A stretch of 36,285 nucleotides of DNA, from NCBI RefSeq assembly GCF_016841685.1, contig NZ_JAENYR010000035.1, positions 1-36,285 of the forward strand. Reading direction: 5' to 3'. Position 1 is the first letter of the stretch. Each line of letters begins with the position of its first letter. Source of the stretch: Thiohalomonas denitrificans. GTDB lineage: Bacteria > Pseudomonadota > Gammaproteobacteria > Thiohalomonadales > Thiohalomonadaceae. Below the pieces are notes generated by a model. The model saw nothing but the letters and a program-made list of their open reading frames with translations, had not been told where the DNA came from and made no database searches. Below, in pieces: positions 5,937 to 24,655 of the stretch. The position numbers were made by a program, and so were the translations under genes.

Positions 5937-5998
5937 GCAGCAGGGTCAGGTCTTTCCTTTGTCATGCAGCAGGGTCAGGTCTTTCCTTTTGCATTCCT
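5937..5998. repeat. REP-type repeat pair, left flank of RAYT 1
   Basis: Two direct copies with a 28-bp period of gcagcagggtcaggtctttc, the second overlapping the transposase stop codon. They are inverted relative to the repeat units at 6846-6921 on the other side of the gene. The shared core reads GACCTGACCC on the minus strand. Confidence 0.85.
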
Positions 5999-6829
5999 CG
6001 CACGACTGATTATCCGACTGACATAGGAGTAGTGCAGCCCGAAATGGTCCCCGATTTCCTTCATGCTGTATCCGCCGCTCGCGTAAGCAGCCACTAACGC
6101 AGAATCTCGGCCGGGGAAATGCTTGGCATAATGGTGCAGCGGTTTGGGTAGCGTGCGCCGCTGCTTCTGTGGGATTTCGCTCAGATCTTTATTGTTATCC
6201 AGCCGCGCCTGCATTTTCTCCACGAACGTCTCGGAGCCCAAATAGACCTGGCCCTTTAGCTGTTCCCAGGGACTCGGCTGATTTCTACCCTGGGCCACGA
6301 ACTCGCGGTAGCGCTCCATGGCTCGCACCCTCTGCCGTGCAAAAGATCCGAGGAGCCAGTCGGTGTGCAGCCAGCTGGCTGCCCTGCTTTGACCGGCGGT
6401 CGCCCGATAACTGCTCCACGGCCAACCCTTTGCGCTCCTCACGATCCGGGCCCGGACTGGGTTGAGGACGATATAGCGCGCCAGCTCCAGCAAATACGCC
6501 TCCTTCTGCACGAGGACAGCCTTGTACCGCCCCTGGAAGACATGGCCCACCCGACCGTGCTTGCGGTTGAACCTTTGGGTGTAAACGCCGTTGAGCTGCC
6601 GCATGCCCTTTGACAGGTTGCCGTTCGGCGTCTCCACAAGCAAGTGGTAGTGATTGTCCATCAGGCAGTAGGCATGCACCACCCAACTGAAGCGCTCGCA
6701 CACTTCACCAAGGATGCCAAGGAACAGGCGCCGGTCTTCATCATCCCGATAGATATCCTCCTGACCATCTCCCCGCGAGGTCACATGGTACAGGGCACCT
6801 GCAAATTCAATTCGAAGCGGTCGCGCCAT
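5975..6829 (-). CDS. REP-associated tyrosine transposase (Y1_Tnp), RAYT 1
   Basis: A 284-aa member of the IS200/IS605-like Y1 transposase superfamily of the REP-associated (RAYT) type. The typical opening MARPLRIEFAGALYHVTSRG fixes the start at 6829. The HUH metal site is MDNHYHLLVE (about residues 59-68). The probable catalytic tyrosine is in LLELARYIVLNPVRA (about 115-129). The C-terminus has a helix-turn-helix-like segment (GYSMKEIGDHFGLHYSYVSR) that could bind DNA. Inverted GACCTGACCC repeats flank the gene on both sides, the standard arrangement for RAYTs, which nick and move REP sequences. The family is only distantly related to the 331-aa RAYT at 12907 and 18110. Confidence 0.9.
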   Translation of the reverse strand: MARPLRIEFAGALYHVTSRGDGQEDIYRDDEDRRLFLGILGEVCERFSWVVHAYCLMDNHYHLLVETPNGNLSKGMRQLNGVYTQRFNRKHGRVGHVFQGRYKAVLVQKEAYLLELARYIVLNPVRARIVRSAKGWPWSSYRATAGQSRAASWLHTDWLLGSFARQRVRAMERYREFVAQGRNQPSPWEQLKGQVYLGSETFVEKMQARLDNNKDLSEIPQKQRRTLPKPLHHYAKHFPGRDSALVAAYASGGYSMKEIGDHFGLHYSYVSRIISRARNAKGKT

Positions 6830-6845
6830 AGCCAAACCATACCCG

Positions 6846-6921
6846 AAAGGAATGCAACAGGAAAGACCTGACCCCTATTTTTGAAAGGAATGCAACAGGA
6901 AAGACCTGACCCCTATTTTTG
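6846..6921. repeat. Tandem 38-bp REP unit, right flank of RAYT 1
   Basis: Two identical adjacent 38-bp units (6846-6883, 6884-6921), each containing ggaatgcaacaggaaagacc followed by tgacccctatttttg; a third partial unit (acccctatttt) follows. They are inverted relative to 5937-5998. The core GACCTGACCCC recurs at 8769, 12243 and, split by an IS110 element, at 19393/20889. Confidence 0.9.
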
Positions 6922-7004
6922 ACCCCTATTTTCACGTTGTTTTGTTCTGGGGACTGACTTGATCCACGGCCAATTCGAGGTAATCAGCAAACCGATCTTA
7001 AAGG

Positions 7005-8768: not shown

Positions 8769-8781
8769 GACCTGACCCCGT
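8769..8781 (+). repeat. REP core GACCTGACCCCGT, unoccupied IS110 target match
   Basis: This 13-mer is exactly the sequence obtained by joining the two flanks of the IS110 element (GACCTGA from 19393-19399 and CCCCGT from 20891-20896). It lies at the breakpoint of the truncated gene Y copy. It is the only perfect, uninterrupted match noticed in this window. Confidence 0.7.
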
Positions 8782-11934: not shown

Positions 11935-12245
11935 TATTGTCTCCGGGCGTGCGTCCGTCCATCGATTCACGTCTTGCTCGCTTAACCCCTAATGTATCAA
12001 GCTGGAAAGCTTAAGACGAGAACGGGTTATGGCGGTTGTACCCGGGGCAAGCCATAGGCTCTGCAGAGGTAAACACTCGCCTCCCGGATGAGTTGGGCGA
12101 CGAGGGCAAGGGTTTCGGCGGTGGGGTGGTCGGGGTCGTCCGCTAGTACCCAAGCCAGGGCCTCGGCCTTGAGGAGATTGTGTCTGACGGTGGCGGGGGT
12201 GGTCGGTCAGGGGCAAGGGTTTGGCAGTGTGCAACAATGCGAGAC
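11935..12245. repeat. Direct repeat, copy 2 (longer form)
   Basis: 11935-12181 matches 10440-10685; the additional 12153-12245 segment matches 19309-19399 (cctcggccttgaggagattg ... cagtgtgcaacaatgcgaga). The minus strand shows the remnant frame TPATVRHNLLKAEALAWVLA without a start codon. It ends in a REP core (GACCTGACCC, 12243-12252). Confidence 0.85.
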
Positions 12246-12250
12246 CTGAC

Positions 12251-12316
12251 CCCCGTCGCGTCCCCGTCGCGTCCCCGTCGCGTCCCCGTCGCGTCCCCGT
12301 CGCGTCCCCGTCGCGC
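12251..12316. repeat. 11-bp tandem repeat, six units
   Basis: Six head-to-tail copies of CCCCGTCGCGT (the last unit slightly changed) directly continue the REP core GACCTGAC. Unit and array are too short and have no spacers, so it is not CRISPR. It looks like slippage expansion from the REP end. Confidence 0.9.
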
Positions 12317-16714: not shown

Positions 16715-16734
16715 ACCTGTACCTAAGTACAGGT
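16715..16734. promoter_or_regulatory. lux-box-like 20-bp palindrome
   Basis: ACCTGTACCTAAGTACAGGT is a perfect dyad (ten-base arms apart from the central pairs). It matches the Vibrio fischeri lux box (ACCTGTA-N6-TACAGGT) at all 14 outer positions. Its last base is the first base of the luxR stop codon on the minus strand. No T-run follows, so it does not look like a terminator. Confidence 0.7.
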
Positions 16735-17513
16735 CACTCCATTTCCATCAGCCCATGCCCCAGGGCGATGGCGACGGCGTGGCCTCGGGTGGAGGCATTG
16801 AGTTTTTGCAGGATGTTGCCGACGTGGAATTTGACCGTGCGTTCACTGATTCGCAGGATGGCGGAGATCTCCCACGTATTCTTTCCCTGAGCGAGCCATG
16901 CGAGGAGCTCCTTTTCGCGCGGCGTGAGGGCGGGTATCGAACCGAGTTTCGGACCGACGATTCGACTCAGGGCTTCGTGGAAATGGGGGACGAGGAGGGT
17001 GAGAATGGTTTCAGTCCTGGCGCTGCGCTCCAGTCCGTGATAGCAGAAAAAGCTGCCGATATTGCCGTTTCCCGTTTTGACGCCATGGCCGTATCCGTGT
17101 CCCTGGCTCGTCTCGTTGAACCCGAAGTCTTCTGCCAGGGAGATGACTTCGTGTGTGTCTGCGGTGAACGGTGTGCGGGTGAAGGTATCGCCCCAATATT
17201 GCAGGCGGAAGGTCCTGAAGTTTTCGGCCACGATGGGGTCCTTCCTGACCAGATCTCTTCTGAACAGTTCGGCCAGGTAGTCGTGCGGATAGTCGACGTT
17301 GACCACGTGCAGTTCCGGCGGCGCGCCGTTCTTTCTCCCGGCGACGGCGGAGAGACCGGCCTGATAGCCGATCAGCCCGCGCAGTTCCGCCATGATGTCA
17401 ACCAGTTGCGCTTCTGTGGTGCAGGAAACGCTTCGGTGGATCAGCTCCAGTACGCGGGTCGCGTCGTATTTTGACAGGGACTTTATCTGCAAGGGTCGGG
17501 ACTCCTGTTCCAC
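16734..17513 (-). CDS. LuxR-family transcriptional regulator with autoinducer-binding-like domain
   Basis: A 259-aa LuxR-type regulator. The C-terminus has a canonical GerE/LuxR helix-turn-helix ([40 protein letters not shown]). The N-terminal 170 residues resemble the autoinducer-binding domain, with W and D residues ([14 protein letters not shown]) in the expected region. No luxI is visible, so it is a LuxR solo that may sense an exogenous acyl-homoserine lactone or another ligand. A GTG at 17513 starts the frame; a TTG 18 bases later has a better AGGAG and is an alternative. A 20-bp lux-box-like palindrome adjoins its stop codon and another palindrome lies about 100 bp upstream of its start. 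Confidence 0.85.
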
Positions 17514-17616
17514 TCACCCGTTACGCCGAACCCCGCACCATCCCGGAAGGGCGAAGCGGTTGGAGCGCGGCCACAGGGTTCTACGTCTACGCAAGCTGCC
17601 CAATCGGCAGATTTTA

Positions 17617-17634
17617 ATAGTGCGATTGCACTAT
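17617..17634. promoter_or_regulatory. 18-bp palindrome between luxR and ABC gene
   Basis: ATAGTGCGATTGCACTAT has two perfect 7-bp arms around GATT. It lies in the divergent promoter region of luxR (minus) and the truncated ABC ATPase (plus). A regulator binding site is likely; which regulator is unknown. Confidence 0.5.
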
Positions 17635-17798
17635 GCGTTAGTCAAACAGGACAAGGATTGCGAAATCCGGCATCCGGTACCACGATAAGGCCGGCCTTTG
17701 TGCGGCAACACCGCTCCCGAGCCTCTGCCGCTTTTTTTGCAGCGTCGCAGGCGGCTTCTTGCCGTATACTCGGTGCAGGTTCGACATCAGGAATCACC

Positions 17799-18020
17799 GT
17801 GCCCGATAAATCCGGAAAAATCGTCTTCCGCACCGAGGATTTGACCAAGACCTACCATGTCGGCGAAGTGGAGATCCGTGCGCTTCGCGGTGTCGATCTG
17901 GTTTTCTATGCAGGCGAGTTCGTGGTCCTGCTGGGGGCCTCCGGCAGCGGCAAGTCGACACTTCTCAACATCCTCGGCGGGCTGGATACGGCCAGTTCCG
18001 AGCATAATTACCCGGAAACT
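17799..18020 (+). pseudogene. ABC transporter ATPase (LolD/MacB type), truncated by RAYT 2
   Basis: About 72 N-terminal residues of an ABC ATPase are left: [20 protein letters not shown], the Walker A motif [12 protein letters not shown] and [10 protein letters not shown]. That order and wording fit the LolD/MacB (lipoprotein release or macrolide efflux) subfamily. The GTG at 17799 has AGGAA five bases upstream. The gene is cut at about 18005-18020 by the RAYT 2 element; Q-loop, signature and Walker B are missing, and the rest of the gene is not in this window. The residual frame ends at 18080 inside the element. Confidence 0.85.
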
Positions 18021-19304
18021 AATTACCCGGACACCCACTCCAAGCCATTGCCATCCTCTCCCAGTTCTGAGAGTCTGTAAACCCGCACTGTTATCAAGGA
18101 ATAGATGCCATGCCCAAACCACGGAAAGCCCTCGTCTCGCTCGAGGCCACCCCTTATTACCATTGCGTCGCCCGCTGCGTGCGCCGTGCCTTTCTTTGTG
18201 GTGAAGACGCCGTCTCGGGCAGCAGCTTCGAACACCGCCGCGGCTGGATTCGCGAGCGCCTGTTTCAGCTCTCCCAGGTATTCGCCCTTGACGTATGCGC
18301 GTACGCAATCATGTCGAACCACTACCATCTGGTCCTACACGTCGACCGCGAAGCTGCAACGGATTGGGACACACCGGAAGTCCTTCGCCGCTGGCATGCG
18401 CTGTTCTCCGGGAATGAGCTGACCCGGCGCTTCGAACGCGGGGAAACGCTTCTCCCTGCGGAGCTGCGCGTCGTCGATACCTTCGCCGAGCGTTCGCGCT
18501 TGGCGGACATCAGCTGGTTCATGCGCTGCCTGAACGAGGAGATCGCCCGCAAGGCGAATGAGGAAGATAACTGCACTGGCCGTTTCTGGGAGGGCCGTTT
18601 CAAATCTCAGGCGCTGCTTGATGAAAAGGCCCTGGCGGCTTGTCTGGCCTACGTGGATCTGAATCCGGTTCGGGCGCAGATGGCACAGACGCCGGAGGCG
18701 TCCGAATTCACCTCTGTTCAGGAGCGGGCTACCGCCGCGAAGCAGGCGAGCCATCCCAATGAGCCGCCATCACAACCGGCCCGCCTTTTGCCGTTTGCCG
18801 GCAACCCGCGTGAACCGATGCCCAAGGGCCTGCCCTTTCGGCTCACCGATTACCTGGACCTGGTGGACTTCACCGGACGGCTCATCCGTGAAGGCAAGCG
18901 CGGCGCCATCCCCGAGCACCTGCCATCCATCCTCCAGCGCCTGGAGATCGATCCCAAGCAGTGGGGCTACCTGACCACCCAGTTCGAGAGCCCCTTCAAG
19001 GGACTTGTGGGCGCGGCGAATCACCTCAAACAAGCCTGCCAGCAACTCGGCTATCGACGAACGCCCGGAATCGGCGCCTCCCGAACGCTGTTGGCGTAGC
19101 GCCCTTCTTTCCTGTCACGTACCTCCGCTGCGGATCGCCAGACCCGCAAATTTCGCTCGCGCTAAGTTAGGCCTGCTGAGCCAAAAACCGATTCGATCGC
19201 GACAAATCAACCTATGTCGCCCCTCGACCACAGGCGAAGTCGAATAGACGGCGACCGCGCGCCCGGCTTTTTCCTTTGTGTTCTTACGGTGGGTGTCCGG
19301 GTTG
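18021..19304 (+). mobile_element. RAYT 2 element, copy 2 (complete)
   Basis: It is bounded by a 14-bp terminal inverted repeat: ACCCGGACACCCAC at 18025-18038 and GTGGGTGTCCGGGT at 19289-19302. The left end is preceded by a second AATTACCCGG (18006-18015), repeating the tip at 18021-18030. The element contains the transposase gene and a conserved 200-bp downstream segment shared with copy 1. It cuts an ABC ATPase gene on the left and abuts a repeat fragment on the right. Confidence 0.85.
18110..19099 (+). CDS. REP-associated/IS200-like tyrosine transposase, RAYT 2 copy 2
   Basis: A 329-aa intact transposase, almost identical to the copy at 12907; it lacks two residues ([11 protein letters not shown] for [13 protein letters not shown]). 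HUH motif MSNHYHLVLHV and the Tyr-containing AACLAYVDLNPVRAQ are present. Preceded by the same leader (gagagtctgtaaacccgcac and AAGGAAT). Intact ends, intact frame and close identity make this the copy most likely to be active. Unlike classical RAYTs, which stay single-copy per genome, this one is found twice plus a fragment (9657-9863) in one window, more like an IS200-type element. Confidence 0.9.
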   Translation: MPKPRKALVSLEATPYYHCVARCVRRAFLCGEDAVSGSSFEHRRGWIRERLFQLSQVFALDVCAYAIMSNHYHLVLHVDREAATDWDTPEVLRRWHALFSGNELTRRFERGETLLPAELRVVDTFAERSRLADISWFMRCLNEEIARKANEEDNCTGRFWEGRFKSQALLDEKALAACLAYVDLNPVRAQMAQTPEASEFTSVQERATAAKQASHPNEPPSQPARLLPFAGNPREPMPKGLPFRLTDYLDLVDFTGRLIREGKRGAIPEHLPSILQRLEIDPKQWGYLTTQFESPFKGLVGAANHLKQACQQLGYRRTPGIGASRTLLA

Positions 19305-19308
19305 ATCT

Positions 19309-19399
19309 GGCCTCGGCCTTGAGGAGATTGTGCCTGACGGTGGCGGGGGTGGTCGGTCAGGGGCGAGGGCTTGGCAGTGTGCAACAATGCGAGACCTGA
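19309..19399. repeat. Fragment of the direct-repeat family, cut by IS110
   Basis: It matches 12153-12249 with few differences (ggcctcggccttgaggagat ... tggcagtgtgcaacaatgcg). Similarity ends in GAGACCTGA at 19399, where the IS110 element begins; its continuation CCCCGT is found at 20891 on the other side. Confidence 0.85.
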
Positions 19400-19416
19400 A
19401 CATCCCGCTCGTATTT

Positions 19417-20643
19417 TCAAGCTTTTTTTAACCAATCGGCCGAATTTTTGTCCTCTCTAAATTCGTAATACCTTCCTTGCTTGAGCATGGAAAAAATAAC
19501 GCGACTGAGATGTCGACCCAAAGCCCGAATGGCTTGATTATGTGTCTTTCCCTGAGTTCGTTTTTTCTCATAGTAACGCTGTGATTCGGGGACCTGCTTG
19601 CGATGGCGATCCACGCCAACCATCATCGCTGCCTTGGCTCGCGTATTGACGTGTTTCGGATTCTTCGACCCTCGCTGTTTACCGGAACTGTTGTCGAGAT
19701 TCGCCATGCCGAGATACACCGCGAGGCTTCCGTCCTTGGGGAATCGTTCGATGGTTCCCAGTTCACCAGCAATTTCAGAGGAACAGACCGGCCCAAAACC
19801 GGGGATCGAGTCGATGAGCTGTGCGATCTGAGATTGCTCCATCAGCTCAAGGCACTGGGCCTCCAGTGCCTTGAGCTTCGTGCGCAGTTCCAGCACACGG
19901 CGAGCATCCTCAACGATCATTGGCCCGACCCACGCGACATCGTGGCTAAAGCTGGCCGTTTTCTGCCAAGCCGTGATTATCGAGGCGTACTTACGACCAA
20001 TGCCTTTGATCCCGAGGATGGTGCATTGCCGAAGGCGCGCCAACTTCGAAAGGTCGTCACCGTGGGAAAGAAGGTTGAGAAACCAGACGTTGTCGGCATC
20101 CTTCGTGATGGCTAGGAGGCCAGGGCAAACAGCCTGTAAATCAGCCTGCATGCGGCTGAGCAGCCGACTTCGTTCATTGACGAGGGTGCGGCGACGGCGA
20201 GTGAGGCGTTTGAGCTTTTCATTCTCTAGGGGCGTTGCAGCAACCTCCTGGAGCACACTTTTCGCAACGGGAAGGTGGTCGCCAAGCTGAAATAACTCGA
20301 GGCCCTTGCGGGCATCGATGCGGTCACTCTTGGCCGCTGCTGGAAAAATTTCCTTGAATCGGGCCAGCTTGAGGTTGTTGATGTTGAATAGGCGATAACC
20401 GCGGGAGCGAACCAGGGTATCCAGCGGACGAGCCCAGCCGTTGTACCCTTCCATGGCTACCGATACCCCACCACCATAGCGGCGTTGGTGGCTCTCTACT
20501 CGTTCGAAGAAAAGATCAAATCCTTCCGGACGATGCGCAAGATCGAACTCATCCAGCACTTCGCCAGAAGGCAGGCCAATAGCAACACTGTGGCTGTGGC
20601 AGCCGACATCGATGCTGACACGAATTTCGGAGGGGGTTGGCAT
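19417..20643 (-). CDS. IS110-family transposase (RuvC-like DEDD plus Transposase_20 domain)
   Basis: A 408-aa IS110 recombinase. The N-terminal RuvC-like DEDD domain shows IDVGCHSHSVAIGL (first Asp), VSVAMEGYNGWARPL (Glu) and AAKSDRIDARKGLELF (the two Asp). A helical middle follows, then the Transposase_20 domain: LIDSIPGFGPVCSSEIAGEL, YLGMANLDNSSGKQRGSKNP and the conserved tail RAKAAMMVGVDRHRK, which carries the serine-containing catalytic region. The start at 20643 is chosen for GGAG nine bases upstream; a start 15 bases earlier lacks one. IS110 enzymes use a bridge RNA encoded in the element to choose the target; a matching RNA is proposed directly upstream. The frame is intact. Confidence 0.92.
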   Translation of the reverse strand: MPTPSEIRVSIDVGCHSHSVAIGLPSGEVLDEFDLAHRPEGFDLFFERVESHQRRYGGGVSVAMEGYNGWARPLDTLVRSRGYRLFNINNLKLARFKEIFPAAAKSDRIDARKGLELFQLGDHLPVAKSVLQEVAATPLENEKLKRLTRRRRTLVNERSRLLSRMQADLQAVCPGLLAITKDADNVWFLNLLSHGDDLSKLARLRQCTILGIKGIGRKYASIITAWQKTASFSHDVAWVGPMIVEDARRVLELRTKLKALEAQCLELMEQSQIAQLIDSIPGFGPVCSSEIAGELGTIERFPKDGSLAVYLGMANLDNSSGKQRGSKNPKHVNTRAKAAMMVGVDRHRKQVPESQRYYEKKRTQGKTHNQAIRALGRHLSRVIFSMLKQGRYYEFREDKNSADWLKKA

Positions 20644-20659
20644 TGTTAGTGTCTCCATA

Positions 20660-20888
20660 AGTCAGAACCCGCTTGAAAATCATCCGCCGGTCTCGTCTAC
20701 TTACAGAGCCACATCAGAAACTGATCGACACCATCCCGTTCGACCCATCGGATGATGCAAGGTGGCGGAGGCGGCATTTCAGGTCCGAGCGAGCCGGAAA
20801 CCGGCCACCGACCCCGTGAGCCACACCCCCGCCAAGGACAATCCTAACTGGCTTCAAGGGGTCCCGTCACTATGCAAATTCGATGGTA
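20660..20888 (-). ncRNA. Candidate IS110 bridge RNA
   Basis: The non-coding 5' segment of the element contains ACGGGGTC (minus strand, 20817-20810), identical to the left flank plus core of the insertion (20896-20889). After a short hairpin (ggccggtttccgg) comes GACCTGA (20785-20779), the reverse complement of core plus right flank (TCAGGTC). A stem closes the loop outside (GGCGG...GGC with GCC...CCGCC). This is the layout of a bridge-RNA target-binding loop. A second hairpin (CATCATCC with GGATGGTG, around 20757-20728) may be the donor loop; partial matches to the element ends (CGGGATG, CGATGG) occur there but their order is unclear. Confidence 0.6.
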
Positions 20889-20890
20889 GA

Positions 20891-20946
20891 CCCCGTACCC
20901 CCCCCTTTGTTGTAAACATTTCATCCCCCCCCTTTGTTGGGCTTAT
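20891..20946. repeat. C-rich duplicated segment with residual attC end
   Basis: It holds two copies of cccccccctttgttg, about 30 bp apart, each followed within 15 bases by aaacatttca (the second inside the next gene's 3' end). GTTGGGC at 20936-20942, next to the stop codon of the first cassette gene, is an attC core; the rest of that attC is missing or replaced by the repeat and IS110. Confidence 0.55.
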
Positions 20947-21372
20947 TTAGCTTAAACATTTCAGGAAGCGATCGATCTTCTCCATGACTTCTTCGCGCGT
21001 GAAGCCGCGTCCTGTGACTGTTGTTGATGTGCCGCTATTCTTAACTGACTGCTCACCGAATAGAGGTACGGCATCCTCGTAGTTGCCTTTGTAGTTGCGC
21101 CACGCCGTGTCAAGTACCCTACGCCTTCTCCACCCAGACACACTTCGGAGATTTTGGTACGCCTGATAGATTTCCAGAAAATCTCTTTGTTGCCTTTTTC
21201 TGACTTCTTCTGAGCCCAGCATACGAACGCTTATGAGCTGCGCCACAAGAAGGTTTCGGAGTGCCGCCTCCGCCTGAAGTACATGAGAGTGGCGCACAGC
21301 CAAAATACCGGCGAATGCACCTATGAGTGCACCCACTAACCCCGACAGAAGATTTATAACGAGATCAGCCAT
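20947..21372 (-). CDS. Cassette 5: small membrane-anchored protein, unknown function
   Basis: A 141-aa protein with one N-terminal transmembrane segment with glycine zipper-like spacing (LINLLSGLVGALIGAFAGIL type; MADLVINLLSGLVGALIG start) followed by a basic, helical cytoplasmic part (RKRQQRDFLEIYQAYQNLRS, GWRRRRVLDTAW). No family recognised. The start at 21372 (MADLV) is preferred; it lies seven bases after the attC core GTTGGGC, as usual for cassette genes. It is the last readable cassette of the array and its own attC is truncated by the IS110 junction region. Membrane anchoring next to effector-type cassettes is compatible with a defence role, but this is only inference. Confidence 0.65.
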   Translation of the reverse strand: MADLVINLLSGLVGALIGAFAGILAVRHSHVLQAEAALRNLLVAQLISVRMLGSEEVRKRQQRDFLEIYQAYQNLRSVSGWRRRRVLDTAWRNYKGNYEDAVPLFGEQSVKNSGTSTTVTGRGFTREEVMEKIDRFLKCLS

Positions 21373-21378
21373 TAAGAT

Positions 21379-21413
21379 GCCCAACCCCACGGCTGGGCGG
21401 CCGATTGTTGGGC
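21379..21413 (-). other. Short attC-like site between cassettes 4 and 5
   Basis: GCCCAAC (21379-21385) and GTTGGGC (21407-21413) are exact complements and match the consensus RYYYAAC/GTTRRRY; an inner CCCA/TGGG stem lies between. At 35 bp it is shorter than usual attC sites (about 57 bp or more), so it may be a deletion derivative. Confidence 0.5.
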
Positions 21414-21427
21414 AACCACGTCACGAG

Positions 21428-22363
21428 CTATTTCCTTTCTGTGGAACTGATTCGTTCCACGATGGCTCGCAGATCTAGCCCGAAACGTTTCCAATTTTCA
21501 GGATCAATGTCGATCATAAACAGTTCATCCCAGGTCTGCTGTAAGACCGGCCAAGGTGGAAGATATGGGATGGCGCCTAGCTGTGCTTGGATTTCTGCGT
21601 TAGTCAGCCTAGCCTCAACGAGCATCTGCTCTCGCATTCTCTGCACGCGCTTGGCCCGTTCCGCAGGGCGCACTGACCTGACAAGCGATTCAATCAGCGC
21701 CTCGTAGGCAAGAATGGCAAATGGCTCCCATTCAAAATTCACCTTTCCCGCTTCACGAGAAGCACTTTCGGCGATATCAGACAGCCTTGGGTTCTCGTCC
21801 ATAAAGCGCCTGTAGAATTCTTTGGCACCAGCGAGCAGATTGCGCGGCATCACCACTGCGTCGGGTCCAACCAGCACGACCGCAGGGGCACGAGGACCTC
21901 GCTGTAGCGCCTTAATTCCCGCAAATCCAGTGCAGGCAGCGACGACCACGACTAAGTTGCATCCGGTTGCAACATTCAACGCCTGCAAATGCTCAGTCAA
22001 CTCATCCCACGTCAGCATCTCGGTCCCACCGCTTCCGTTCGGTCCTTGAAGTCCCATATCACCACCGTGAGACTCAAGATGGAGCACCGGCCGCAGTTTG
22101 TCATTCCTAGCCCGTTCTGTTGCCGCCGAAATCGCCGCGACAACGTCGTTCTTGTTATTGCACGAGAAATACGCAGACCATCCTTGGCGCCGCTCATTCA
22201 TCCAATCGTGGAGCATTCGCCCGGTTCGGGTTTCATTGGACGGTAGCCATTCCACAATCCACACGTTGGATACATGAATCTCCACCAACTCGGGAGGGGC
22301 CGGGAGCGCCTCAAGTAGCTTTTGCTCAGCGGTCGTCAGTTCGTCGTCCATGCGATTGCTCAT
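21428..22363 (-). CDS. Cassette 4: CHAT/caspase-like cysteine peptidase candidate
   Basis: A 311-aa soluble protein. The central part reads as a caspase/CHAT fold: strand plus catalytic His in RPVLHLESHGGDMGLQGP, then LTWDELTEHLQALN and a second strand ending in the Cys: NLVVVVAACTGFAGI. The His-Gly...Ala-Cys-x-Gly pattern and about 50-residue spacing match clan CD peptidases. The C-terminal third (SLVRSVRPAERAKRVQRMRE, LPPWPVLQQTWDELFMIDID) is unrecognised. Caspase-like proteins occur in bacterial abortive-infection systems, usually with a sensor gene; here the gene is a lone integron-type cassette. ATG 22363 follows the attC core GTTGGGC by three bases; ATG 22351 is an alternative. Catalytic activity is inferred from the motif only. 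Confidence 0.6.
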   Translation of the reverse strand: MSNRMDDELTTAEQKLLEALPAPPELVEIHVSNVWIVEWLPSNETRTGRMLHDWMNERRQGWSAYFSCNNKNDVVAAISAATERARNDKLRPVLHLESHGGDMGLQGPNGSGGTEMLTWDELTEHLQALNVATGCNLVVVVAACTGFAGIKALQRGPRAPAVVLVGPDAVVMPRNLLAGAKEFYRRFMDENPRLSDIAESASREAGKVNFEWEPFAILAYEALIESLVRSVRPAERAKRVQRMREQMLVEARLTNAEIQAQLGAIPYLPPWPVLQQTWDELFMIDIDPENWKRFGLDLRAIVERISSTERK

Positions 22364-22366
22364 GCG

Positions 22367-22465
22367 GCCCAACGCCTTAGTTCAGCGGCGCTTGAGGCGA
22401 CAACCGTTTTTGCGTCAGCTAAAATGGGCGGCGACTCAAACGTCCGCTGCAACGATTCGTTATGT
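22367..22465 (-). other. attC recombination site between cassettes 3 and 4
   Basis: On the minus strand it starts ACATAAC (22465-22459) and ends GTTGGGC (22373-22367). The arms pair imperfectly (GCAGCGG with CCGCTGC, TTGAGTCGCC with GGCGAC-type segments), giving the long hairpin expected of attC. It lies between a stop codon and the next start codon with no spare sequence. Confidence 0.7.
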
Positions 22466-22486: not shown

Positions 22487-24655
22487 CTAACACTTAGACA
22501 TAGCCTTATAGTGCTCCGGGTAACCGGTTTTCTCGAACACCAACTTCAACCCCTCTTTAAAGACGTCATAGTCAAACTCTTTCATATCAAAGATATTTTG
22601 CCCAAGAGAGTGGGACTCCCGATTGACGTATCGATAGAACGCTTGGAATTTGATGTCCTGCAACTCAGGAATTTGAAAGACGTTGCCCAACGGCTTTTTG
22701 CCCACAAAATTAAAGAAATATTCAACTATGTTTCGCATACAGTTGGCAATGAGCGCCGGGTGCTGACTGTTGTCGTTTACGACGGACCAGTACGCTTGAT
22801 AATCGTTCTGAATTGACTCGTATTTCATTTCCTGGATGACGCTTCCAGTTGATGGCTTTGAAAGCCTGAAAAGCTTCTGAGTGTCTTTCCTAAGGTCGTG
22901 ATTGATCTCAGTCAACTCATAGAAAAAATAAAGGCTGTGGGTTAAAACTATAACCTGACGATACCGATCCCCCTTAAAGAAGATGGAGCGGATTAAGCGC
23001 CCAACATTAAAGACAAAAATATGCGAAAGGCTAGAAATGGGGTCATCTATCACCACAATGCGTTGGGCATGGGTATCCTCTGCGCTAAATTTCCCTTTGC
23101 AGAGCTCACAAAAGTACAGAAAGCTGATCATCATCCTCTCGCCCTCGCTGAGCGAGTAAAACGCATCTTTTTCATCGCCTGCCCGTACGATGCGATAAAG
23201 GCTGTCTGAATGTTTTTTTACGCTGAATTCATCAATGCCTAGGTCCAGGAGGCCTGCGTTGATTGCATCAACAGCCGCATCCACGTTTACCGTTTGCTTC
23301 TGTGCTGCAGTGATCCGTTCCTTGACCTTCGCAAGATCGGAATTGATACTGCGCACCTCACCATCCAGATCTTTCAGTTTATGATTTGCAGCCTGAAGAT
23401 CGTGTTGAAATCGCGACACAGTTTGGTCGTACTGCCAACGCATCAACATCCAAAATTCGTCTTTCAGCTTTGCGAGGGCGGCCTCGCGGTTTTGTAGTCG
23501 GTCATTGTATGCGCCTACATCACTGTTAATGGCGACGACCTCCGCATTAAAATCTGCCACTAAGCCTGATGTATCCGTCAGCGAAATGGGAGCCTTGGGA
23601 CTACTGATTTTTTGTTCGATCTTTTCAACGTTCCGTAGCAAGGCGGTAGATAATGCTTGGTGCTTCCCTAGAAGCATGCTCTTACGTTCCCGTGCGAATG
23701 GGTGGTCCGAAAACTCACCAACCCCGGGTAGCGCCTCAACTGCGCTTTGGTACTTCCGTAAAAGGTCAGCAAGCGTATCGAGTTGATTCTGATAGCTCTC
23801 ATCGAAATACGATCTGACGCTTTCAAGAAACTTTCTGGATATGGTTGTCTCTTGGCAGAAAGGGCATTGCACTCCGACATCGTCAACTTCATCTGGCAGG
23901 TATGTGATCCCTTGATTCACCCAGTCTGCGTTCCCAAGTTTCTCGATCAGGTCTGCCACTTCACTGTCAGTATTACCAAGGATGGTTGTGCCGAAAAGCG
24001 GGTGGGACTCGACGTCAGGAGCTTGGAATACCAAGTTCTGCAACGGCTGTTGGGGTTTCGCATCGTCGCCCTTGAGCGTTTCCACCTCTCTTCGGAGAGC
24101 TTTAATGTCCCTTTGCGGCTCATCTGTTGGCTTGGGAATAGACAGCAAGTGTTCAAATAGCTTGTCTTTTTTCCCCATCAGACCCTCGAAGCAGTACTCG
24201 AGGACACGATCCCCGCCCGTATAGGTCTTTTTAATACCCCACACTTCCTCGATCACTTGCTGCCGCTGCTTCGAATATGACTCATTTACTTTTTCTTTGT
24301 CGTCTCGCTTCGATTGCAGCGAGTGCTCCAGCTCTCCTTGTTTCTTCGTTCCCTCAATAATCTTCTGTTCGGCTTCTTTGTTCTCCTTTGAAAGGCTAAA
24401 AATGCCCTTTAGATTGTCGGTAACGAAGAAATTGTCTCTTATGAATTTTTGGTTATAGACAAGAATGGGCACAGTTTGGGCAGGCGTCTTGCTGCAAAGC
24501 ACGAACTGGGGATCATTCGGCTCATATAGGAAGTTCGATATTGTTGATTTACCAGTACCGTTAAGGCCGTATATCAAATTGATCTTCTTGTCGGTCTGGA
24601 GACTCGTCGCGTGTTTGAAGCTGGCGACAGCATCCATACGTATCTCGGTGATCAT
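22487..24655 (-). CDS. Cassette 3: RloC/PrrC-like anticodon nuclease (AAA_13 ATPase)
   Basis: A 722-aa SMC/Rad50-like ATPase of the AAA_13 type. Walker A: INLIYGLNGTGKSTISNFLY (about residues 26-45). Long coiled coils surround a zinc-hook CPFCQE (about 263-268). Signature: YSLSEGERMMISFLYF; Walker B: RIVVIDDPISSLSH. The C-terminus has CMRNIVEYFFNFVGKK and, 37 residues after that Glu, FYRYVNRESHSLG. The R-x3-E...H arrangement is that of the HEPN-type nuclease triad of PrrC and RloC, which cut tRNA anticodon loops during phage infection or DNA damage. RloC differs from PrrC in having the zinc hook, as here. No restriction-modification genes are adjacent. Its attC-bounded position marks it as an integron cassette, unusually long for one. 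Confidence 0.75.
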   Translation of the reverse strand: MITEIRMDAVASFKHATSLQTDKKINLIYGLNGTGKSTISNFLYEPNDPQFVLCSKTPAQTVPILVYNQKFIRDNFFVTDNLKGIFSLSKENKEAEQKIIEGTKKQGELEHSLQSKRDDKEKVNESYSKQRQQVIEEVWGIKKTYTGGDRVLEYCFEGLMGKKDKLFEHLLSIPKPTDEPQRDIKALRREVETLKGDDAKPQQPLQNLVFQAPDVESHPLFGTTILGNTDSEVADLIEKLGNADWVNQGITYLPDEVDDVGVQCPFCQETTISRKFLESVRSYFDESYQNQLDTLADLLRKYQSAVEALPGVGEFSDHPFARERKSMLLGKHQALSTALLRNVEKIEQKISSPKAPISLTDTSGLVADFNAEVVAINSDVGAYNDRLQNREAALAKLKDEFWMLMRWQYDQTVSRFQHDLQAANHKLKDLDGEVRSINSDLAKVKERITAAQKQTVNVDAAVDAINAGLLDLGIDEFSVKKHSDSLYRIVRAGDEKDAFYSLSEGERMMISFLYFCELCKGKFSAEDTHAQRIVVIDDPISSLSHIFVFNVGRLIRSIFFKGDRYRQVIVLTHSLYFFYELTEINHDLRKDTQKLFRLSKPSTGSVIQEMKYESIQNDYQAYWSVVNDNSQHPALIANCMRNIVEYFFNFVGKKPLGNVFQIPELQDIKFQAFYRYVNRESHSLGQNIFDMKEFDYDVFKEGLKLVFEKTGYPEHYKAMSKC

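What the first reader, a model, noticed from the sequence alone, without database searches (positions are those of the whole stretch)
19398..20890. IS110 element carrying guide-like sequences that match its own insertion site in a REP core
Seen: on the element strand the left junction reads ACGGGG-TC and the right one TC-AGGTC. The non-coding leader of the element holds ACGGGGTC (20817-20810) and then, 24 nt later, GACCTGA (20785-20779), the reverse complement of TCAGGTC. Known: IS110 recombinases use a bridge RNA from this leader; one side of the target loop copies the left target plus core and the other side is complementary to core plus right target. The match in sequence, order, strand and core is thus what a bridge RNA for this target would show. 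An 8-mer and a 7-mer falling in place by chance in 245 nt is improbable. Inference: the element is programmed to enter GACCTGACCCCGT.
Basis: partly seen in the sequence, partly recalled or inferred. Interest (0 to 1): 0.9.

Follow-up and report, generated by a model that had tools for sequence, protein, structure and literature searches.

The report
RNA-guided jumping gene in repeat DNA
This is a small bacterial jumping gene whose built-in guide RNA carries copies of the two halves of the DNA site it sits in, a real but already understood kind of element whose relatives show the guide being rewritten to fit other sites, in one case an integron.

Summary
A 1,489-bp IS110-group element lies at 20888-19400 (minus) between two TC core dinucleotides. 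Its leader holds ACGGGGTC (20817-20810) and GACCTGA (20785-20779) on opposite sides of one internal loop, as a bridge RNA's target-binding loop requires. 22 leaders (the window's included) share the fold: 97.3% of stem cells paired, 56 two-sided compensatory cells. Of 34 elements, 30 left and 20 right guides could be held against flanks; they match their own better than shuffled flanks (P = 5e-5 each side). The second loop matches the element's own ends: 27 of 27 intact rows agree at the TCTAC/TCTAT position. It is a new member of a known kind (IS110 bridge RNAs, published 2024). Beyond the finding: the target is the end of a low-copy REP-like repeat tied to REP-associated tyrosine transposases (RAYTs), with a paralogous uninterrupted site at 12243. 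Relative L006 carries guides for what I read as integron attC sites, though its recombinase groups with the window's element. No expression or activity could be tested.

The parts
20891..20896 (-). left target ACGGGG (outside the element)
   Evidence: copied by the left guide
20889..20890 (-). left core dinucleotide TC
   Evidence: TC also at the left junction of relatives
20659..20888 (-). left end: 230-nt non-coding leader that holds the bridge RNA
20675..20837 (-). bridge RNA core (target loop plus donor loop), model R1 match 148.9 bits (R1 was built with this sequence among its rows)
20820..20833 (-). 5' arm of the target-loop stem
20810..20817 (-). left target guide ACGGGGTC (copy of left target plus core)
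20779..20785 (-). right target guide GACCTGA (reverse complement of core plus right target TCAGGTC)
20764..20775 (-). 3' arm of the target-loop stem
20749..20756 (-). 5' arm of the donor-loop stem
20732..20737 (-). left donor guide GGGATG (copy of the right end of the element)
   Evidence: GGAATG in both guide and end in L011, L012, L014
20696..20705 (-). right donor guide: GTAGA pairs core plus LE start TCTAC; TG upstream, after 3 unpaired nt, fits the next CA
20679..20686 (-). 3' arm of the donor-loop stem
19417..20658 (-). IS110 recombinase, 413 aa (DEDD_Tnp_IS110, Transposase_20; NCBIfam IS110 family RNA-guided transposase)
19400..19416 (-). short right end ...GCGGGATGT
19398..19399 (-). 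right core dinucleotide TC
19393..19397 (-). right target AGGTC (outside the element)
12243..12253 (-). GGGGTCAGGTC with a right flank paralogous to the element's right flank (about 90 bp): a paralogous uninterrupted site; its left flank differs and has one G more
8769..8781 (+). unoccupied exact copy of the 13-base target GACCTGACCCCGT
18110..19099 (+). RAYT-like gene beside the insertion site (NF047646, 45 bits, under the 80-bit cut-off)
5978..6829 (-). RAYT (NF047646, 83.1 bits, cut-off 80) flanked by inverted GGGGTCAGGTCTTTC / GAAAGACCTGACCC repeats

Best explanation
This is an IS110-group insertion sequence. Its leader, inferred to be transcribed, folds into a bridge RNA with two internal loops. 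[quoted passage not shown] together they specify ACGGGG-TC-AGGTC. The donor loop carries GGGATG and TG-(3 nt)-GTAGA, which match the junction of the element's own ends (GGGATGT-TC-TACCA). The DEDD/serine recombinase, with this RNA, would join a circular form to the end of a RAYT-associated repeat at the TC core. Shown here: the sequence matches, the conserved fold, and guide-flank agreement across relatives in both loops. Inferred from published IS621 and seekRNA work: transcription, circle formation, strand exchange.
For: Exact matches at the right places, order and strand. Recombinase above curated cut-offs in Pfam and in NCBIfam 'IS110 family RNA-guided transposase'; 413 aa with a long left end and a 17-nt right end. 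Fold: 24 stem pairs over 22 leaders, 97.3% of cells paired, 12 pairs with two-sided changes; 0 of 500 shuffles as high on four of five measures (on the fifth, further pair types, 203 of 500); slid controls 34-60% paired. Permutation tests of guide v. own flank, P = 5e-5 on each side. Rewritten guides matching their own flanks: left GCGGTC (L006), GGTGTC (L011), CCCGGATC (L022), CTGAGGGTC (L046); right TCAAGTCTG (L009), TCAGGAC (L011), TCGGGTGA (L012), TCAGACTC (L013). Donor loop: 6 of 6 elements starting TCTAT carry ATAGA and 21 of 21 starting TCTAC carry GTAGA. Paralogous uninterrupted site in the window.
Against: No relevant Rfam family matched and no sigma-70-like promoter was found in 20600-20990. 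Matches are far from perfect: on the left 16 of 30 rows score 4 or fewer of 6 exact; on the right, without a bulge, 9 of 20 rows score 3 or fewer of 6, and L014 and L046 stay at 4 or fewer even with a bulge and wobble pairs. The left guide's match at positions -8 to -5 is weak over the family (P = 0.01). Rows are related by descent, so the permutation P values overstate independence. The left donor guide matches only six bases and not the core. Only one copy was found in the own genome. In the decayed copy L049 the donor guide does not fit.
Confidence: 0.94

Rival explanations
1. The 8-mer and 7-mer are chance matches in a G-rich leader beside a G-rich repeat.
For: The leader is G-rich; the looser 6+6 match arises in 897 of 400,000 simulated leaders.
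Against: Joint 8+7 match in 22 of 400,000; guides agree with own flanks over 30 left and 20 right rows beyond shuffles; guide positions fall at fixed places in a conserved fold.
Confidence: 0.01
2. The recombinase or the DNA hairpin shape of the repeats selects the site; the leader RNA is structural or regulatory and merely resembles the target.
For: Some targets lie at the foot of hairpins (L003 and L013 by eye; attC-like for L006); small RNAs regulating the ISPpu9 transposase are reported (PMC8450116, start of abstract seen in the listing).
Against: Guide letters change together with flanks, including CCCGGATC (L022) and TCGGGTGA (L012), at constant positions in the loop; IS621 and ISEc21 are shown by others to be RNA-guided (PMC11208160, PMC11187229, passages).
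Confidence: 0.04
3. The element is an immobile copy whose guides are fossil.
For: Single copy found in the genome with an unoccupied exact 13-base target in the window.
Against: The reading frame is open over 413 aa, both ends and both loops are present, and the recombinase is over family cut-offs.
Confidence: 0.2

Closest known systems
IS621 / ISCro4 (IS110 group, bridge RNA in the left end)
   Same: DEDD recombinase; [quoted passage not shown]
   Different: Core TC instead of CT; recombinase only distantly similar (phmmer E 3.8e-5 to IS621, 1.1e-5 to ISCro4); three unpaired bases in the right donor guide instead of two flipped out; no room seen for a 5' stem-loop before the target loop (by eye); different repeat.
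ISEc21 and seekRNA elements (IS110 and IS1111 types)
   Same: Target-matching RNA segments in the order bottom-strand match then top-strand match, as reported for the IS110 type; natural redirection between relatives (PMC11187229, passages).
   Different: Different target; attC targeting there is reported for IS1111 members (ISKpn4, ISPst6, ISPa25), whereas relative L006 here has its RNA upstream of the gene, as in the IS110 type.
ISPpu9, ISPpu10, ISPa11, ISPsy8 and others inserted in REPs
   Same: Specific insertion into REP sequences (abstract of PMC1525189).
   Different: Different hosts and repeats; here the repeat is GGGGTCAGGTC, low copy and RAYT-associated.

Membership tests
IS110 group of IS110 family | DEDD RuvC-like domain and Transposase_20 domain | tested here: met
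   Pfam 65.7 bits (cut-off 29) and 52.6 bits (cut-off 21.3); NF033542 163.6 bits (cut-off 140)
IS110 group of IS110 family | catalytic D, E, D, D and serine | tested here: inconclusive
   D, E, D, D align with ISCro4, but that stretch scores only 3.5 bits; a serine lies in the matching stretch of the C-terminal part, which serine is catalytic was not settled
IS110 group of IS110 family | long non-coding left end, short right end, core dinucleotide at both junctions | tested here: met
   230 nt v. 17 nt; TC at both junctions
IS110 bridge RNA | two stem-loops with internal loops in the left end | tested here: met
IS110 bridge RNA | target loop guides match own insertion site | tested here: met
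IS110 bridge RNA | donor loop guides match own ends | tested here: met
   right donor guide in 27 of 27 intact rows (the decayed L049 does not fit); left donor guide six bases only
IS110 bridge RNA | RNA is expressed and bound by the recombinase; circular intermediate | not testable with these tools
   no expression or biochemical data
an Rfam family | match to a curated covariance model | tested here: not met
   no relevant match in 4,227 families for window 17000-22000; whether Rfam 15 holds a bridge RNA family was not established
REP as insertion target | repeated, palindromic, tied to a RAYT | tested here: inconclusive
   10 exact copies v. 1 reversed control, RAYT over cut-off flanked by inverted copies, but low copy number and several sites show no second arm nearby

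The most novel reading that the evidence does not exclude
One clade of IS110 elements keeps the RNA scaffold and donor loop nearly fixed and rewrites only the target guides so as to follow whatever hairpin-forming repeat its host carries: GGGGTCARGTC repeats tied to RAYTs in many hosts, GGGGTCAGACTC hairpins in the L013 host, and integron attC sites in the L006 host. In part of the clade the right guide would pair with a one-base bulge. This would make repeat-tracking by guide replacement a long-term strategy rather than an occasional redirection. (Odds lowered from 0.45 to 0.40 on rechecking: some hosts do not fit, see the Full report section.)
Probability: 0.4. Interest if true: 0.5.

Novelty: new member of a known kind. 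Interest (0 to 1): 0.36.

Why it matters
It shows that bridge RNA programming can be read directly from raw sequence and confirmed by comparison alone. The clade gives a natural series of guide-target pairs with a TC core and a recombinase far from IS621, useful for testing how freely such guides can be changed. The difference between one relative, whose guides fit attC-like integron sites, and its kin, whose guides fit RAYT-linked repeats, is a concrete case of natural reprogramming between two kinds of mobile DNA.

Tried and rejected
Rfam: nothing relevant. Recombinase against plasmids (E up to 1e-60), phages (E up to 1e-20) and viral contigs: no relative. Promoter scan: none; a TAnnnT box about 20 nt before the target stem is only seen by eye. 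Syntenic empty site in the sister genome G001: no match, and that answer warns that an empty result shows nothing; the paralogous site at 12243 was used instead. Enrichment of L006's exact target 11-mer in its host: not enriched (4 v. 7 reversed control), which spoke against repeat tracking until the flanks showed attC-like sites whose boxes vary. RAYT next to every relative: rejected; in the flanks held (up to 2.5 kb), the window, L003 (fragments), L026 and L050 (motif) showed one (L015 by eye only). A one-base bulge in the right guide raises the exact matches of L005, L027, L028, L042 and L044 to five of six; tests with and without the bulge both reach the floor of their shuffles (5,000 and 20,000), so they neither support nor exclude it. 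The unpaired-guide constraint had no effect (energies equal the free folds), so its counts are ordinary minimum-energy folds. Rows dropped: of the 34 elements, one search used 30 left rows (L012, L024, L053 have no left end; I dropped L049, whose leader is decayed) and 20 right rows (L047's pattern hit was rejected as not an element end; for L010 and 12 others no right end was recognised). L016, L017, L018 have no leader in the stretch held; weak model hits L051, L052, L054, L055 were not used; L040 repeats L024; L002, L023, L039 are the window's own element. The right-donor-guide count leaves out the decayed L049; the pattern missed L026. The tree used 13 proteins; L013 and L027 gave no full frame in that script, and L014, L019-L022, L025, L028 and the loci were not put in.

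Full report
Observation. The element runs from 20888 to 19400 on the minus strand, 1,489 bp, between two copies of TC (20890-20889 and 19399-19398). The 230-nt leader precedes a 413-aa reading frame (20658-19417); the right end is 17 nt. It is the only copy found in its genome, by DNA (a second, 34-base hit there lies inside the same gene on the other strand) and by RNA model.

What the protein is. Pfam gives DEDD_Tnp_IS110 and Transposase_20 over their cut-offs; NCBIfam gives 'IS110 family RNA-guided transposase' over its cut-off. The only solved relatives found by sequence are ISCro4 and IS621, at E 1.1e-5 and 3.8e-5, so by sequence this lineage lies well apart from IS621.

Relatives. By DNA, 3 of 56 genomes matched, the own included: a full-length relative at 75% identity in the same genus (L003) and a left-end piece (L004). 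Eighteen loci came from public genomes; 6 of 369 genomes of the class matched at E 1e-60, the own included; 8 of 398 genomes of the phylum matched the RNA model, the own included. By record titles and kinship the hosts are mostly Pseudomonadota, with Campylobacterota (L011, L012, L014, L017, L020, L021) and one contig labelled Bacillota (L010).

The RNA. Twenty-two leaders, the window's included, align over 180 columns. RNAalifold gives 33 pairs, 17 with two-sided compensatory change. On a 24-pair version, 97.3% of cells pair and 56 cells show two-sided change; on four of five measures none of 500 shuffles reaches the observed value, on the fifth (further pair types, 30 v. 29.2) 203 do; sliding the partners drops pairing to 34-60%. 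The outer target stem pairs in every cell. The left guide follows its 5' arm and the right guide precedes its 3' arm, so both lie in one internal loop, with a variable apical stem between them. The second hairpin has a similar layout. The stems were derived from this same alignment, which favours them over the slid versions.

Guides against flanks. Guides were cut at fixed places in the fold and flanks at the element ends for 34 elements. Exact matches at -6 to -1 on the left: 139 over 30 rows v. 121.8 +/- 3.5 for shuffled flanks; at +1 to +5 on the right: 71 over 20 rows v. 53.4 +/- 4.3; P = 5e-5 each, the floor of 20,000 shuffles; collapsing identical pairs leaves P = 1e-4 (27 pairs) and 2e-4 (17 pairs). 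Descent is not corrected for. The window element scores 6 of 6 on the left and 5 of 5 on the right, with the next right base a possible G-T wobble. Individual changes are telling: L022 CCCGGATC, L046 CTGAGGGTC, L011 GGTGTC / TCAGGAC, L012 TCGGGTGA, L013 TCAGACTC, L009 TCAAGTCTG each occur in both guide and own flank. Poor fits are common too: 16 of 30 left rows have 4 or fewer of 6, and 9 of 20 right rows (L005, L008, L014, L015, L027, L028, L042, L044, L046) have 3 or fewer of 6 unless a bulge is allowed.

Donor loop. Core plus left-end start is TCTAC in 21 rows and TCTAT in 6; the loop reads GTAGA in all 21 and ATAGA in all 6. The TCTAT rows fall into two groups of hosts (Campylobacterota; L015 and L028), so this is about two changes, not six. 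L006 and L019 start TACCT instead of TACCA and carry AG where others carry TG upstream of GTAGA; L015, which also has T there, does not fit. The left donor guide reads GGGATG or GGAATG as the right end does. Published handshake positions (PMC11208158, passages) fit at their first base: the base before the target core is G in 29 of 30 rows, facing an invariant C after GTAGA, and the base before the donor core is T in 20 of 20 rows, facing an invariant A after the right target guide.

The target. GGGGTCAGGTC occurs 10 times in the genome v. 1 for the reversed control, four of them in this window besides the occupied site. The site at 12243 has a right flank nearly identical to that of the element over about 90 bp. 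It is a paralogous uninterrupted site with a single TC; its left flank is different and reads ACGGGGGTC, one G more. An exact 13-base target at 8769 is unoccupied. A RAYT over its family cut-off at 5978-6829 is bracketed by GGGGTCAGGTCTTTC and the inverted GAAAGACCTGACCC, and RAYT-like genes under the cut-off lie at 18110 and 12907. Over 24 host genomes GGGGTCARGTCT occurs 92 times v. 6 for the reversed control, in 17 of 24 genomes.

Do guides follow host repeats? For: of the seven genomes without GGGGTCARGTCT, five host elements with other guides (L006, L007, L011, L012, L013), and the L013 host has four GGGGTCAGACTC in paired hairpin arms v. 0 control. Against: the hosts of L015 and L026, whose sites or guides are of the GGGGTCARGTC type, also lack it apart from the interrupted site; hosts of elements with other guides can have it (L022 host 2, L008 host 3); and G340, host of L024 with a TCAAGTC guide, has one GGGGTCARGTCT but five GGGGTCAGACTC.

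Retargeting. L006, whose recombinase is 68% identical to the window's, has guides GCGGTC and AGGTT. Its left flank holds four repeats with CTAACG...GTCAG(G/C)TT...GTTAG ends at 234-325, 629-720, 1138-1244 and 1703-1809, and the element interrupts a fifth; joining its flanks gives GCGGTCAGGTTCAGCAAATTGTTAGG; similar uninterrupted sites lie in L080, L081 and L082, none was recognised in L083. The same genome has an integron integrase at 472 bits (cut-off 265). I read these as attC sites; the attC consensus is recalled and no attC model was run. The exact 11-mer is not enriched in that genome (4 v. 7). In the tree of 13 proteins L006 falls in a five-row group with the window element, L003, L005 and L024 (95/94), inside a six-row group with L026 (97/94); the root is a midpoint. 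So the guides changed between RAYT-linked repeats and attC-like sites, direction not shown, while the scaffold stayed.

Known or new. Bridge RNAs and seekRNAs of IS110 elements, their covariation with targets, REP targeting, natural redirection, and attC targeting by IS1111 members are in print (PMC11208160, PMC11208158, PMC11187229: passages; PMC1525189: abstract). Searches for the repeat motif (975 papers, 15 listed) and for IS110 with attC and integron (286 papers, 15 listed) showed nothing on this clade in the rows listed; the rest was not seen. Hence: new member of a known kind.

Noticed in passing
L031, L032, L033, L037 near position 1500; window 6860-6930; L005 left flank; window 12243-12315: Several GGGGTCAGGTC repeats are preceded by a tandem duplication X-GGGGTC(A)-X-GGGGTCAGGTC in which X (about 6-11 nt) is the local flank and differs from locus to locus; L037 shows it at both ends of one palindrome, and at 12243 the unit is ACGCGACGGGG in about six copies. 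It may be a mark of how the RAYT-linked repeats insert or expand.
   Followed up: partly
   Followed up: yes
G000:C12:3722-4665 (locus L077): The window's own genome holds an integron integrase gene, seen as two overlapping pieces (371.8 and 81.1 bits), possibly frame-shifted.
   Followed up: no
L010 3480-4100 and left flank: A stretch of over 70 bp ending in TGTGGGGTC occurs both just before the left end and downstream of the right end of this relative, as if the element entered one copy of a tandem duplication.
   Followed up: no
window 22490-24655 (-) and 21431-22372 (-): A large AAA_13 family ATPase gene (722 aa, Pfam 386.9 bits) and a neighbouring 314-aa protein without a Pfam match lie next to the element; a defence-type island is possible.
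   Followed up: no
window 16734-17513 (-): LuxR-type regulator with an autoinducer-binding domain.
   Followed up: no
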